A stretch of 21,924 nucleotides of DNA from Treponema sp. GTDB taxonomy: Bacteria; Spirochaetota; Spirochaetia; Treponematales; Breznakiellaceae. The DNA lies in assembly GCA_031273185.1 (NCBI GenBank), contig JAISSG010000072.1, positions 1 through 21,924 of the forward strand, in the 5' to 3' direction. The notes under the pieces are model-generated. The model was given only the letters and a program-made list of their open reading frames with translations, did not search any database and was not told where the DNA came from. The translations under genes and the position numbers were made by a program. Below, piece by piece: positions 8,705-13,076 of this stretch; position 1 is the first letter of the stretch; every line of letters starts with the position of its first letter.

Positions 8705-9166
8705 TTAACTTGTTTGCCTTGTTAGTGGCATGAAGGCTATTCTGTTGTCATCTTCGGGACATGCTATGGGGAAAGGCGGTTGATCGTATATCGCAATCCC
8801 CCATATATTGTTGCTGGTTTTGGCACAAGCGAGGGAATAATGGATTCCCGGATCAAGCGTATACTTGAATGAAACATCCTTGGCGAAAAAACGCTCGTTG
8901 CCGTCCGTCCAGTTAATATCCAGCGTGAATTTCGCTTCGCCGGGCGGAAGGGTCACGTCACGCCATGTTGAAGCGGAATTGCCCAGTATCTTTTTTGCCG
9001 GTACGGGAGTCCCGTTGTATATGGTCACCTCAAGCCCGTGGTAAAAAAACAGGCGGCTTGACTCCGCTTCGGGCAGGCTATCGTCAAGAACCACCGGCGG
9101 CGTAGCGCAGGTCCTTAACACCAGCAAGGCGCAAACCGCGCTAAGTACCACCGCTATTTTTTTCAT
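8705..9166 (-). CDS. Putative lipoprotein, unknown function
   Basis: A 153-residue exported protein. MKKIAVVLSAVCALLVLRTC forms a basic start and hydrophobic core ending at C20 (LRTC, a relaxed spirochete lipobox), so it is probably a lipoprotein. The remainder is beta-rich (FYHGLEVTIYNGTPVPAKKIL, EAKFTLDINW, HYSLACAKTS) and resembles no family I can name. The frame stays open upstream through the heptanucleotide repeat, but ATG 9166 is the right start: GGAGGT lies 8 nt before it and the signal sequence begins there. It faces away from asd and converges on dapA. A promoter is visible at 9194-9222. Confidence 0.72.
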   Translation of the reverse strand: MKKIAVVLSAVCALLVLRTCATPPVVLDDSLPEAESSRLFFYHGLEVTIYNGTPVPAKKILGNSASTWRDVTLPPGEAKFTLDINWTDGNERFFAKDVSFKYTLDPGIHYSLACAKTSNNIWGIAIYDQPPFPIACPEDDNRIAFMPLTRQTS

Positions 9167-9193
9167 TACAGCACACCTCCGTTGTATAACTAA

Positions 9194-9222
9194 AATATAC
9201 GAACACACTCCCCGCAAGGCAA
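9194..9222 (-). promoter_or_regulatory. Promoter of the small lipoprotein gene
   Basis: On the minus strand TTGCCT (9222-9217), a 17-bp spacer and TATATT (9199-9194) form a plausible sigma70 promoter. The leader of about 20 nt contains the GGAGGT ribosome binding site. Confidence 0.45.
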
Positions 9223-9277
9223 ATTTTTCCCGTGCCGCCTTTGTTGCATACGGCGGCATTTGTTTGGGCTCTTGCCA

Positions 9278-9368
9278 CTCCCCACTCCCCGTTCCCCGTT
9301 CCCCGTTCCCCGTTCCCCATTCCCCACTCCTCATTCTCCATTCCCCCCTCCCCATTCCCTATCCCCCA
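9278..9368. repeat. Heptanucleotide tandem repeat, 13 units, upstream of asd
   Basis: Thirteen contiguous 7-bp units follow the pattern YTCCCCR, with TTCCCCG repeated three times in a row and point variants at the right end. It lies between the divergent lipoprotein and asd genes. The -35 position of the asd promoter falls within its last units. The unit equals CCCCRYT, close to the cyanobacterial STRR1 heptamer CCCCART. A second tract of the same type is found inside the lysA-like gene. Confidence 0.9.
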
Positions 9369-9375
9369 CAATATT

Positions 9376-9402: not shown

Positions 9403-10503
9403 ATGGCAAAGATACCGGTCGGCGTGTTGGGAGCGACGGGCATGGTGGGGCAGAACTATATCACCCTGCTCAATAACCACCCCTGGTTCGAGGTGCGCTA
9501 CGTCGCGGCCTCGCCACGGAGCGCCGGGAAAAAATACGCGCAGGCGGTCGCCGGACGCTGGCAGCTTGCGGCAACCTACGCCCCCCATGTCGGGGAGCTT
9601 GTCGTCGGGGATGCCAACGACGTTGGCGCGGCATCTGCGGCGCACAAGCGGGGTGACTGCGCCTTCGTGTTTTCCGCGCTGGAGATGGGCAAGGACGAGA
9701 CCCGCGCCCTTGAGGAAGCGTATGCCGCAGCGGGCATTCCGATTATTTCCAACGCCTCGGCGCACCGATGGACCGCCGACGTGCCGGTGCTTATCGGCGA
9801 GGTGAACCCCCACCACGCGGACATCATCCCCATGCAGAAAAAGGCCCGGGGCTGGGACAAGGGCTTTATCGCGGTAAAACCCAACTGCTCGATACAGAGC
9901 TACATGATCCCCCTGCACGCCCTCGCGCAGGCAGGGTACCCGGCGCAGCGGCTCATCGTTACCACCATGCAGGCGGTTTCCGGCGCGGGCTACCCCGGCG
10001 TGCCAAGCCTCGACATCATCGACAACATCGTCCCCTACATCGGCGGCGAGGAGGAAAAGTCCGAAACGGAGCCGCTGAAAATCTTTGGGACGATTGCTGA
10101 CGGCGTGTTCAAAAACGCGGATCTGCCGAAAATTTCCGCGGCCTGCAACCGGGTGCCGGTTGTTGACGGGCATATCGCCTGCGTCAGCCTGGAGTTCGGC
10201 GAGAAAAAACCTTCTATCGACGAGATAAAAAACATCTGGGCAACGTTTCAGGCGCTGCCCCAACAGATGGATTTTCCCTCGGCACCCAAGCCGCCGATTG
10301 TCTACCGGGAAGAGGACAACCGTCCCCAGCCCCGCAAGGACCGCGACGTTGGCGGGGCGATGGCGGTGGTGATCGGCAGGCTACGCCCCTGCAAGGTGTT
10401 CGACATCCGCTTCACCGCATTTTCGCATAACACGGTGCGGGGCGCGGCGGGCGGCGGCATTCTCAACGCGGAACTGCTGAAGCACAAGGGGTATTTGGGT
10501 TAA
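9403..10503 (+). CDS. asd: Aspartate-semialdehyde dehydrogenase (archaeal/fungal-type)
   Basis: A 366-residue enzyme that reduces aspartyl phosphate with NADPH to aspartate semialdehyde, the substrate of DapA. GATGMVGQ at 10-17 is the nucleotide-binding loop. C162 in KPNCSIQSY is the catalytic cysteine, and H257 in VDGHIACVSLEF is the likely catalytic base. The PNCS context and overall pattern fit the archaeal/fungal branch rather than the E. coli type. The frame extends upstream through the heptamer repeat, but ATG 9403 has AGGAGA 5 nt before it and begins the conserved domain. It heads an operon with the lysA-like and dapL genes, with gaps of 10 and 13 nt. Confidence 0.93.
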   Translation: MAKIPVGVLGATGMVGQNYITLLNNHPWFEVRYVAASPRSAGKKYAQAVAGRWQLAATYAPHVGELVVGDANDVGAASAAHKRGDCAFVFSALEMGKDETRALEEAYAAAGIPIISNASAHRWTADVPVLIGEVNPHHADIIPMQKKARGWDKGFIAVKPNCSIQSYMIPLHALAQAGYPAQRLIVTTMQAVSGAGYPGVPSLDIIDNIVPYIGGEEEKSETEPLKIFGTIADGVFKNADLPKISAACNRVPVVDGHIACVSLEFGEKKPSIDEIKNIWATFQALPQQMDFPSAPKPPIVYREEDNRPQPRKDRDVGGAMAVVIGRLRPCKVFDIRFTAFSHNTVRGAAGGGILNAELLKHKGYLG

Positions 10504-10513
10504 TGGAGATTAT

Positions 10514-11863
10514 ATGAGCGAAAAACATTTCCCCCTGACCAGGGCCGATCTTGAACGGCTGGCGCAAACTTACCCAACACCCTTTTACCTTTACGACGAG
10601 CGGGGCATTGTCGAAAACGCCCGCAGGATTAAAGCGGCGTTTTCGGTTTTTCCCGGCTACAAACAGCACTTTGCGGTAAAGGCCCTGCCCAATCCCTTCA
10701 TCCTCAAACTGCTCGCCGCCGAGGGCCTTGGCGCGGACTGCTCAAGTTATGCGGAATTGCTCCTCGCGCAAATGGCGGGCATAGCGGGCGAGGACATCAT
10801 GTTCTCCTCCAACGAAACCCCGGCGCGGGAGTACGAACTGGCAAAGCAGCTTGGCGCGGTGATCAATCTGGACGATTACACCCACATCGAATTTCTGGAA
10901 AAGACCGCCGGATTGCCCCGGCTTATTTCCTGCCGCTACAACCCCGGCCCGCTCAAGGAGGGCAACGCGATCATCGGCAAGCCGGAGGAGGCAAAGTACG
11001 GCTTTACCCGCGAGCAGCTTATCGACGGCTACAAACTGCTCAAGGCAAAAGGCGTGTCGCGTTTTGGCCTGCACGTCATGGTCGCTTCCAACGAACTCAG
11101 CCTGGACTACCATCTTGAGACCGGCAAACTCCTTTTTGAGCTTGCTATGGAAATAAAGGCAAAGTGCGGCGTCAGCCTTGAGTTCGTTAACCTCGGCGGC
11201 GGCCTGGGGATTCCCTACCGGCCCGAGCAGGCGGCGGTAAGCTGGGAAGCCCTCGCCAGCGGTTTGCGAAAGCTCTACGATGAAATCATTGTGAAGGGCG
11301 GGCTTGACGGCATGGCAATTCACACCGAGTACGGGCGGCCAATTACCGGGCCCTACGGCTGGCTGGTGGCGCGGGCGATTCACAAAAAGGAAATTTACCG
11401 CAATTACATCGGCCTTGACGCATGCATGGCCGACCTTATGCGCCCCGCCCTGTACGGCGCGTATCATCACATCACCATACCGGGAAAGGAAACCGCCCCG
11501 TTAAGCGAAACCTATGACGTTGTGGGAAGCCTCTGCGAGAACAACGACAAGTTTGCCATACAGCGCAAACTGCCGAAGATCAAAACCTCAGCGGAAGCCC
11601 TGATAAAAACCGCCGCCCCAGTCCCCGATCCCCCGTCCCCGATCCCCAGTCCCCAGTCCCCACTCCCCCCCCCCGGCGACTTTGTGGGGGTCCACGACGC
11701 GGGGGCGCACGGCAGGGCGGTGGGCTTCAACTACAACGGCAAGCTCCGTTGCGGCGAACTGCTGTTGCGGCAGGACGGATCGGTCGTGCAGATACGCCGG
11801 GCGGAAACCGTGGAAGATTATTTTGCGACGCTTGACATAGCAAGCCTGAAAAATTTTTGTTAA
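10514..11863 (+). CDS. lysA: Diaminopimelate decarboxylase-like protein with repeat-derived insertion
   Basis: A 449-residue PLP enzyme of the ornithine/diaminopimelate decarboxylase fold III. In the DAP pathway it would convert meso-DAP to lysine. K56 in HFAVKAL binds PLP, GGGLGIPY (228-235) contacts its phosphate, EYGRP (272-276) is conserved, and C341 in GSLCENND is the catalytic cysteine from the partner subunit. Between RKLPKI (351-356) and GDFVGVHDAGAHG (388-400), which sit next to each other in ordinary family members, lie about 31 extra residues rich in proline and serine. They are encoded partly by a heptamer repeat and a C10 run. The start at 10514 has GGAG nearby. Enzyme specificity within the family is inferred from the neighbours. 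Confidence 0.86.
   Translation: MSEKHFPLTRADLERLAQTYPTPFYLYDERGIVENARRIKAAFSVFPGYKQHFAVKALPNPFILKLLAAEGLGADCSSYAELLLAQMAGIAGEDIMFSSNETPAREYELAKQLGAVINLDDYTHIEFLEKTAGLPRLISCRYNPGPLKEGNAIIGKPEEAKYGFTREQLIDGYKLLKAKGVSRFGLHVMVASNELSLDYHLETGKLLFELAMEIKAKCGVSLEFVNLGGGLGIPYRPEQAAVSWEALASGLRKLYDEIIVKGGLDGMAIHTEYGRPITGPYGWLVARAIHKKEIYRNYIGLDACMADLMRPALYGAYHHITIPGKETAPLSETYDVVGSLCENNDKFAIQRKLPKIKTSAEALIKTAAPVPDPPSPIPSPQSPLPPPGDFVGVHDAGAHGRAVGFNYNGKLRCGELLLRQDGSVVQIRRAETVEDYFATLDIASLKNFC
11621..11674 (+). repeat. Heptanucleotide repeat and C10 tract inside the lysA-like gene
   Basis: Seven 7-bp units (GTCCCCG, ATCCCCC, GTCCCCG, ATCCCCA, GTCCCCA twice, CTCCCCC) at 11621-11669 run into a run of ten C at 11665-11674. 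They are translated as a proline/serine-rich segment. The unit is the same family as the tract before asd. Seven units make 49 bp, so the reading frame depends on the copy number and on flanking bases. Confidence 0.9.
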
Positions 11864-11876
11864 TAAGGAAAGAACA

Positions 11877-13076
11877 ATGCGACGAAACCCTTGTATAGCC
11901 AACATAAGAGCCGGATACCTTTTCCCCGAAATCGCCAAGCGGCGGCGGGAATACGCTACTGCCCATCCAGATGCAAAGATCATCAGCCTGGGGGTGGGGA
12001 ACACCACCGAGCCGATTCTGCCCCACATCAACGACGGGCTTGTGGACGGGGCAAGGCGGCTTGGCACCGTGGAAGGCTACTCTGGCTATCAGGACGAGGG
12101 GCTGCTTGAACTGCGGCAGAGAATATCGGCGGTGTTTTACGGCGGCAAATTTACCGCAAATGAAATTTTTATTTCCGACGGGGCCAAGTGCGACATCGGC
12201 AGATTGCAGTTGCTGTTCGGCGCGGGAACCAAAGCGGTGGTTCAGGACCCCTCGTACCCCGTATACGTTGACGGCTCTGTGATGGTAGGCGCCGCCGGTG
12301 GTGCGGCAAAAAGCGGCTACGAGGGCATCGTCTACCTCCCCTGCACGGCGGCAAACGGCTACTTCCCCGACCTTTCGCTGATCCCCCCGAAAAGCCTTGT
12401 CTATTTCTGTTCGCCGAACAACCCCACCGGCGCGGTTGCTACCAGGGAACAGCTTACCGCACTGGTGCAAGCGGCCACCGAAAAAGGTGCAATCATTATC
12501 TTTGACGCGGCGTACAGCGAATTCATCCGCGACCCGGCGCTTCCCAAAAGCATTTTTGAAATTGAAGGTGCGCGGCACTGCGCCATCGAGGTTAACTCGT
12601 TTTCCAAAACCGCCGGTTTTACCGGTGTGCGTTTGGGCTGGACGGTGGTTCCGGCGGAACTGCGCTACGAATCGGGCGAAAGCGTCAACGCTGACTGGGA
12701 CCGTGTTTGCGCGACGATTTTCAACGGCGCTTCCAACATCGCCCAGGCTGGCGGGCTTGCCGCGCTGGGCGACGAGGGCCTCAAGGAAATTCGCAGTCTT
12801 ACCGATTTTTACCTGGGCAACGCCCGCCTGATCCGCGAGGCCCTGCACGGACTGGGCATAAACTGCGTGGGCGGGGACAACTCGCCGTACATCTGGGCCC
12901 ATTTTCCGGGCAGGGATAGCTGGGAAGTTTTCTCCGAAATCCTTGAAAAGTGCCAGGTGGTGACAACCCCCGGCGCGGGGTTTGGCCCGGCGGGCGATGG
13001 CTACGTCAGGTTTTCCGCCTTTGGCCACCGCGCCGACGTGGAGGAAGCCTGCCAGAGACTGCGGCGGTGCCTTTGA
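11877..13076 (+). CDS. dapL: LL-diaminopimelate aminotransferase
   Basis: A 399-residue fold-I PLP aminotransferase. It converts tetrahydrodipicolinate directly to LL-diaminopimelate with glutamate as amino donor, bypassing the succinyl or acetyl branches. K244 in NSFSKTAGFTGVRLGW is the PLP lysine. SPNNPTG, DAAYSEFI and the N-terminal IRAGYLFPEIAKRR and GNTTEPILPH blocks are characteristic of DapL. The start follows AAGGAAAG closely and lies 13 nt after the lysA-like stop. It is the last gene of the asd operon, followed by a hairpin. DapL is known from spirochetes, chlamydiae, cyanobacteria and plants. dapB and dapF are not in this window. Confidence 0.93.
   Translation: MRRNPCIANIRAGYLFPEIAKRRREYATAHPDAKIISLGVGNTTEPILPHINDGLVDGARRLGTVEGYSGYQDEGLLELRQRISAVFYGGKFTANEIFISDGAKCDIGRLQLLFGAGTKAVVQDPSYPVYVDGSVMVGAAGGAAKSGYEGIVYLPCTAANGYFPDLSLIPPKSLVYFCSPNNPTGAVATREQLTALVQAATEKGAIIIFDAAYSEFIRDPALPKSIFEIEGARHCAIEVNSFSKTAGFTGVRLGWTVVPAELRYESGESVNADWDRVCATIFNGASNIAQAGGLAALGDEGLKEIRSLTDFYLGNARLIREALHGLGINCVGGDNSPYIWAHFPGRDSWEVFSEILEKCQVVTTPGAGFGPAGDGYVRFSAFGHRADVEEACQRLRRCL

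What the first reader, a model, noticed from the sequence alone, without database searches (positions are those of the whole stretch)
11582..11676. Repeat-bearing insertion inside a lysA-like PLP decarboxylase
Residues about 357-387 separate two blocks that are normally adjacent in diaminopimelate decarboxylases (the segment after the catalytic cysteine C341 and the GDFVGVHDAGAHG block). The extra segment is proline/serine-rich and encoded partly by seven CCCCRYT-type heptamers and a C10 run. It keeps the reading frame, recalling palindromic elements that insert into Rickettsia genes. All catalytic residues remain. If the enzyme is active, this is a repeat element domesticated inside an essential-pathway enzyme near the active-site region.
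Basis: partly seen in the sequence, partly recalled or inferred. Interest (0 to 1): 0.72.

Follow-up and report, generated by a model that had tools for sequence, protein, structure and literature searches.

The report
Repeat array lodged inside LysA loop
A short C-rich seven-letter DNA repeat sits, without breaking the reading frame, in a loop of a lysine-making enzyme of a Treponema-like spirochete, and repeats of the same class lie in frame inside other housekeeping genes of several of its relatives.

Summary
The window's LysA (10514-11863) carries seven heptamers of CCCCRNT type (one unit off-pattern, 11616-11664) and a C10 run, in frame, between two blocks that abut or nearly abut in solved DAP decarboxylases. 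In this clade the site is the most length-variable segment of LysA: the 120 listed relatives have other loops there (2-27 aa, median 8; 31 aa here), none array-like. Nothing shows domestication.

The array is not a one-off. A second lies upstream of asd in the same apparent operon. The class was found in 12 of 39 genomes of a relative's genus and 22 of 195 of its family. Of 57 array-crossing ORFs scanned from nine relatives, 33 have Pfam domains of one protein across or on both sides of the array, in frame: Lon, PriA, Mfd, RecG, ValRS, IleRS and others. Some arrays form inverted pairs around a conserved core (MITE-like), which recalls Rickettsia palindromic elements. Others are solo, as in lysA.

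Best reading: a dispersed G4-type heptamer element, filtered by selection into frame and tolerant loops; a new variant of a known kind. The lysA case is a modest instance, and the in-frame invasion in relatives is the interesting part.

The parts
10514..11863 (+). lysA, diaminopimelate decarboxylase, 449 aa
   Evidence: Pfam PF02784 + PF00278; 71-88% identity to the 120 listed relatives, many named DAP decarboxylase by their source; NCBIfam TIGR01048 257.4 bits, below cut-off 297.9, as are 6 of 6 relatives tested
11582..11676 (+). clade-specific hypervariable loop, residues 357-387 (11675-11676 fall in codon 388), bearing the array
   Evidence: segment of widest length range in the protein among 121 sequences
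11616..11664 (+). heptamer array, 7 units CCCCRNT (third unit CCCCCGT), in frame, encodes APVPDPPSPIPSPQSPL
11665..11674 (+). C10 run closing the array
9275..9369 (+). second heptamer array (CCCCGTT, CCCCACT, CCCCATT units, degenerate at its end), upstream of asd
9403..10503 (+). asd, aspartate-semialdehyde dehydrogenase (ATG 9403 after AGGAGA; the ORF is open further upstream through the array)
   Evidence: TIGR00978 368.7 bits over cut-off 301.2; sequence
11877..13076 (+). dapL, LL-diaminopimelate aminotransferase, next gene downstream
   Evidence: TIGR03542 497.4 bits over cut-off 364.7

Best explanation
The extra LysA segment is a solo copy of a dispersed, C/G-rich heptamer repeat element found in part of this treponeme group (same broad class as the G-quadruplex-forming GGGGAYT heptamers of Nostoc). 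It arrived, or grew, in the most length-variable loop of LysA (residues 357-387). Units CCCCRNT contain no stop in any of six frames, so copies whose total length is a multiple of three read through as a Pro/Ser-rich linker (or a Gly-rich one on the other strand). Selection removes out-of-frame copies and leaves those in tolerant loops and in intergenic DNA. LysA most likely stays active with 17-21 extra loop residues. Shown: the array, the frame, the loop's variability, the many in-frame copies in relatives, the inverted-pair elements with conserved cores. Inferred: that the lysA copy belongs to the same element population, that it arrived by copying rather than by local slippage, the action of selection, and that the enzyme works.
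For: Loop: at the protein level none of the 120 listed relatives (the best 120 of 8000 scored) has an array-like loop; 2-27 aa, median 8, at most 3 prolines, against 31 aa and 11 prolines here; it is the segment with the widest length range of the protein. The two nearest relatives (P0003, P0004; 87-88% identity) have 17 and 21 aa less. Class: the exact three-unit pattern occurs in 12 of 39 genomes of the genus of G001 (247 overlapping matches) and in 22 of 195 of its family; the reversed-letter control gave 8 matches, in 3 genomes. In frame: of 99 arrays in fetched stretches of 9 relative genomes, 66 lie in ORFs (60 distinct) with >=38 aa on both sides; 55 of these 60 plus 2 with a shorter overhang were scanned with Pfam, and 33 of the 57 have a domain spanning the array or domains of one protein on both sides (array positions). 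Of 12 sites outside such ORFs that were examined, none shows one protein split over the array; 6 lie between two different identified proteins, e.g. GAPDH|PGK, GrpE|HSP70. Tolerant loop: in PriA the arrays of G013, G019 and G047, and of G015 as far as its contig shows, sit in the variable loop before (F/Y)YLYGITGSGKTEV. No stops: 0 of 24,576 frames of four-unit combinations.
Against: No genome is held for the window, so the element's copy number in this organism rests on two arrays, and these two have different units (mainly CCCCGTT upstream of asd; CCCCAGT and CCCCGAT in lysA) and 7-8 units rather than the 4-5 most common in G019 and G013. The lysA copy has no inverted partner and no core, so its descent from the paired form is not shown; slippage in C-rich DNA could make it in place. 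27 of 39 genus genomes and 173 of 195 family genomes have no match. The stop-free property is shared by about half of all heptamers. No insertion boundary or target duplication was read. The structure model is weak (mean pLDDT 70) and low also in conserved parts such as 280-318, so its low values at 367-383 say nothing about disorder.
Confidence: 0.7

Rival explanations
1. Local birth: a short C-rich seed in a fast-evolving loop grew by polymerase slippage; no mobile element took part, and the relatives' solo arrays arose likewise, gene by gene.
For: The lysA array is solo, with mixed units and a C10 run; the window's two arrays differ in unit; a slippage origin of heptamers is discussed in PMC4692102 (Discussion read); the loop changes length freely.
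Against: Several relative genomes prefer their own unit across unrelated genes: CCCCAGT 113 of 164 units in G019, CCCCGAT plus CCCCGGT 70 of 97 in G013, CCCCACT 11 of 13 in G162; G015 is mixed. Four to five units make up 35 of 37 arrays in G019 and 17 of 21 in G013, but only 12 of 21 in G015 and 0 of 4 in G018. Arrays pair around conserved cores. This points to copying from shared sources, at least in G019 and G013.
Confidence: 0.2
2. Contingency switch: unit gain or loss in the array shifts the lysA frame and turns lysA (and perhaps dapL behind it) off and on.
For: 7-bp units and a C10 run can slip; the conserved last 62 residues lie downstream of the array.
Against: lysA is a core metabolic gene, and arrays in relatives fall in many functional classes; PMC4692102 argues against phase variation for such repeats.
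Confidence: 0.04
3. Assembly error or decayed gene: the C-tract is miscounted or lysA is a pseudogene.
For: Arrays are hard to assemble; in G015 an array lies at the start of contig C8, and PriA is divided between C8 and C69.
Against: The frame is open through the array to the stop, with the conserved C-terminal 62 residues and the invariant residues intact; in-frame arrays recur in many genes of other assemblies.
Confidence: 0.04
4. Domesticated functional insert that adjusts LysA (e.g. oligomer contacts or regulation).
For: It lies between conserved blocks near C341 and is retained in frame.
Against: No listed relative has such a segment, and the loop is the least conserved part in length.
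Confidence: 0.02

Closest known systems
GGGGA(C/T)T / GGGAATC heptamer repeats of Nostoc and Xanthomonas (PMC4692102; abstract, sections 11 and 16 and further passages read)
   Same: Broad unit class: CCCCAGT, 3 of the 7 lysA units, is the exact complement of Nostoc's GGGGACT; dispersed arrays; preference for about four units (as in G019 and G013); G4-capable strand.
   Different: There most arrays are intergenic (68% in Nostoc) and under-represented within ORFs on the coding strand; in the sampled treponemes 66 of 99 lie in long ORFs, and many pair around a conserved core. The other lysA units differ from the Nostoc consensus. Spirochaetes and treponemes are not mentioned in that paper (term counts).
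Rickettsia palindromic elements (RPE; via review PMC10969869, passages read; originals not held)
   Same: Short elements in frame inside many unrelated housekeeping genes, tolerated by the protein; about 100-180 bp for the paired form in G019.
   Different: The lysA copy is a simple array, not palindromic. The paired form has heptamer arrays as its inverted ends. No sequence relation to RPE was tested.
MITEs
   Same: The paired form in G019 has inverted ends, a repeated core length (12 of 24 cores exactly 55 nt) and many copies.
   Different: No target-site duplication, transposase or mobility shown; the solo arrays lack an inverted partner.
Phase-variable SSR contingency loci
   Same: Tandem unit not divisible by three inside a coding region.
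   Different: No variation among clones known; metabolic genes; within the gene body, not at the N-terminus.

Membership tests
Diaminopimelate decarboxylase (LysA) | PLP-binding barrel and C-terminal sheet domain | tested here: met
   PF02784 97.7 bits, PF00278 55.8 bits, both over cut-off
Diaminopimelate decarboxylase (LysA) | Catalytic-type residues conserved (K56, C341-E342, Y407) | tested here: met
   invariant in 40 sequences; roles recalled
Diaminopimelate decarboxylase (LysA) | NCBIfam TIGR01048 equivalog cut-off | tested here: not met
   257.4 < 297.9 bits; 6 of 6 array-free relatives also below, 262.6-275.8, so the clade is divergent and the array is not the main cause
G4-type heptamer repeats (GGGGAYT class) | Unit with a run of four C/G, at least four tandem units | tested here: met
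   7 units, one off-pattern
G4-type heptamer repeats (GGGGAYT class) | Unit GGGGA(C/T)T exactly | tested here: not met
   3 of 7 lysA units fit (CCCCAGT); 4 do not
G4-type heptamer repeats (GGGGAYT class) | Dispersed in many copies in the genome | tested here: inconclusive
   2 arrays in 22 kb of window; no genome held; dispersed in some relatives
G4-type heptamer repeats (GGGGAYT class) | G-strand folds into a quadruplex | not testable with these tools
   reported for Nostoc/Xanthomonas-derived oligonucleotides in PMC4692102
Rickettsia palindromic element | In-frame insertion in a protein gene | tested here: met
   extra in-frame residues against all 120 listed relatives
Rickettsia palindromic element | Palindromic element of about 150 bp | tested here: not met
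   no inverted partner or core in the window; approached only by paired elements of relatives
Rickettsia palindromic element | Sequence similarity to an RPE family | not tested
   no RPE sequence was fetched
MITE | Terminal inverted repeats | tested here: not met
   lysA copy solo; relatives' paired form has them
MITE | Target-site duplication | not tested
   no alignable empty site in the hypervariable loop
Phase-variable contingency locus | Array length differs among clones | not testable with these tools
   no reads or strains of this species

The most novel reading that the evidence does not exclude
A group of gut treponemes carries its own family of protein-coding mobile elements, independent of Rickettsia RPEs: short elements with heptamer-array inverted ends (and solo-array derivatives such as the one in lysA) that spread through some genomes and persist in frame inside dozens of essential proteins, in tolerant loops, with the heptamer sequence often homogenised per genome.
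Probability: 0.5. Interest if true: 0.78.

Novelty: new variant of a known kind. Interest (0 to 1): 0.58.

Why it matters
In-frame selfish DNA inside essential proteins is known at high frequency from Rickettsia (review PMC10969869, passages). A second case in spirochaetes, with a simple seven-base unit that is stop-free in every frame, would be a natural experiment on where proteins tolerate insertions and how short linkers are born, and would make the question 'what moves such elements' testable in a new lineage. For lysA alone the message is modest: a tolerated insert in a loop.

Tried and rejected
Own-genome search: no genome is held. Plasmid search with the array: no match (low-complexity filter on, so little weight). 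Rfam at gathering threshold: no hit in the window. Search for the element cores in the window: none at E <= 1. Core DNA over the genus: 2 of 39 genomes match (G019 with 5 places, G015 with one short match of 29 bases), although the profile search found more distant copies in stretches of G013, G015 and G001. AlphaFold model of LysA: too weak to use; no fold search was made. Target-site duplications: not attempted. Literature: no paper on such elements in treponemes was seen over the held library (for 51 and 72 only the first 20 of 45 and of 85 papers were listed); the RPE and cyanobacterial repeat originals are not held.

Results against the reading, and rows left out. Of the 57 ORFs scanned, 24 were not counted: most have the array near one end or domains on one side only (e.g. 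TruB three times, PrmC in G019, ZnuA, FlhB, RNase II); three have no Pfam hit (L213, L220, L204); four join two different proteins and may be intergenic arrays with open frames (L162 ACS beta/CdhD, L176 HisA/HisI, L185 QueH/ThiF, L229:3650-5887 permease/ATPase). Five ORFs that met the criterion were not scanned (L165, L177:3367-3735, L202, L225:3828-4280, L232). The 99 arrays come from places that the search listed, and their neighbours, not from all arrays of those genomes. LysA loops were read in 34 of 39 genus genomes; the other 5 gave no match or only a weak one. Of the 12 sites outside ORFs, 6 have a neighbour without a Pfam hit or not scanned, so a split gene is not excluded there. 'Solo' is a strict call; some (L160, L179, L223) show a degenerate partner or a core.

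Full report
What is there. The window is from a Treponema-like bacterium: its LysA is 71-88% identical to the 120 best relatives, many of them named as Treponema MAG proteins, and its best genome hits are Treponema MAGs. That these MAGs come from termite guts is my recall and rests on no call. asd (9403-10503), lysA (10514-11863) and dapL (11877-13076) lie head to tail with gaps of 10 and 13 bases. lysA contains seven heptamers CCCCRNT, the third of them off-pattern, at 11616-11664 and a C10 run at 11665-11674; the frame stays open and the rest of the enzyme is intact. A second array, 9275-9369, lies just upstream of asd. Unit pairs at up to one mismatch are expected about once in a shuffled window and were seen 14 times, 6 of them in lysA.

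Is the site special? In the five solved LysAs shown, the flanking blocks abut or lie 1-3 residues apart. Within this clade they do not: among the 120 listed relatives the loop is 2-27 residues, median 8, with 102 distinct sequences, and it is the segment of widest length range in the protein. None looks like an array, and none has more than 3 prolines against 11 here. In 34 of 39 genus genomes the loop was read and none has an array. So the array extends an already hypervariable loop, by 17 and 21 residues against the two nearest relatives.

Is the array special? The three-unit pattern occurs in 12 of 39 genomes of the genus of G001 (247 overlapping matches, 105 of them in G019) and 22 of 195 of the family; the same pattern read backwards gave 8 matches in 3 genomes. 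Of 12 further genomes, 5 of other spirochaetes and 7 of other phyla, none has it. Units are often genome-specific: CCCCAGT is 113 of 164 units in G019, CCCCGAT plus CCCCGGT 70 of 97 in G013, CCCCACT 19 of 32 in G018 and 11 of 13 in G162; G015 is mixed (CCCCAGT 38 of 125), and the window's two arrays differ from each other.

In-frame residence. I fetched 76 stretches around listed arrays of nine relatives. Of 99 arrays there, 66 lie in an ORF with at least 38 residues on both sides, 60 distinct ORFs. Because the heptamers have no stops, an open frame alone proves little, so I scanned 55 of the 60, and 2 with a shorter overhang, with Pfam (upstream pieces of six again). In 33 of 57 a known domain spans the array or domains of one protein flank it: Lon twice, ValRS twice, IleRS, GlnRS, Mfd, PriA, RecG, two receiver domains, two ABC proteins, two E2 subunits, PrmC, a MiaB-like, three YgiQ-like, two RibF, ThrC, Lnt, a pseudouridine synthase, an AMP-binding enzyme, HydF, a phosphoglucomutase, GcpE, TrmD, PurL, a methyltransferase and an ATP-grasp ligase. 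Gene names beyond the Pfam labels are my reading. Of the 33 arrays not in such ORFs I examined 12 sites; none shows one protein split, and 6 lie between two different identified proteins. If insertion ignored frame, about two out-of-frame cases would be expected for each in-frame one, about 66 beside the 33; at most 27 arrays of the sample remain that could be such. This rough count favours selection on frame. The tolerant-loop rule is visible in PriA, where G013, G019 and G047 carry different inserts in one variable loop and G015 has an array there at its contig end.

Form of the element. In G019, 30 of 37 arrays have an inverted partner within 250 bases. Of 24 paired elements found by pattern, 12 have a core of exactly 55 nt; 23 of 24 cores link by similarity. 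Most copies of the 55-nt core match the profile on both strands at the same place, the second strand more weakly, i.e. it is an imperfect palindrome. A longer core (58-98 nt) is found in stretches of G019, G013, G015 and G001. A HydF query hit the element's peptide at 11 further listed places of G019, 10 of them without a stop. The window has neither core; its arrays are solo, as are 16 of 21 sampled in G015 and 13 of 21 in G013 by the strict test.

Mechanism. The lysA insert is best explained as a solo copy of this element population, held in frame by selection in a loop that tolerates much. How copies move is unknown: inverted ends and repeated core lengths suggest transposition of the paired form; solo arrays may be end fragments, copies by template switching, or local slippage. 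The enzyme probably works, since its invariant residues are intact, but activity was not tested.

Against known kinds. The unit class is broadly that of the G4 heptamers of Nostoc and Xanthomonas, there mostly intergenic (PMC4692102). The in-gene behaviour is that of Rickettsia palindromic elements (PMC10969869, passages). The lysA copy itself fails the palindrome test, so it is not filed as an RPE or a MITE. I saw no report for treponemes in the held library.

Noticed in passing
window 9275-9369: A second heptamer array (CCCCGTT, CCCCACT, CCCCATT units) upstream of asd, between asd and a divergent ORF (8705-9355, minus), in the leader or promoter region of the asd-lysA-dapL genes.
   Followed up: partly
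L210-L229 (G019): Inverted heptamer arrays flank a core of exactly 55 nt in 12 of 24 paired elements; an apparent MITE-like family. Paired elements with a long or short core read through in frame in HydF, TrmD, PurL, ValRS and others.
   Followed up: partly
L186 (G013 ValRS), L261 (G047 PriA): A third, GC-rich kind of core gives the same peptide (LPPSAGDTPATPPS) in ValRS of G013 and PriA of G047, each between heptamer arrays.
   Followed up: no
L181, L258, L261 (PriA); L160, L169 (Lon); L182, L208, L217 (TruB): The same region of the same gene carries different heptamer inserts in different species, as if a hot spot.
   Followed up: partly
G015 contigs C8 and C69 (L195, L204): An array lies at the very start of contig C8, and PriA is divided between C8 and C69, so short-read assemblies probably under-count arrays.
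   Followed up: no
   Followed up: no
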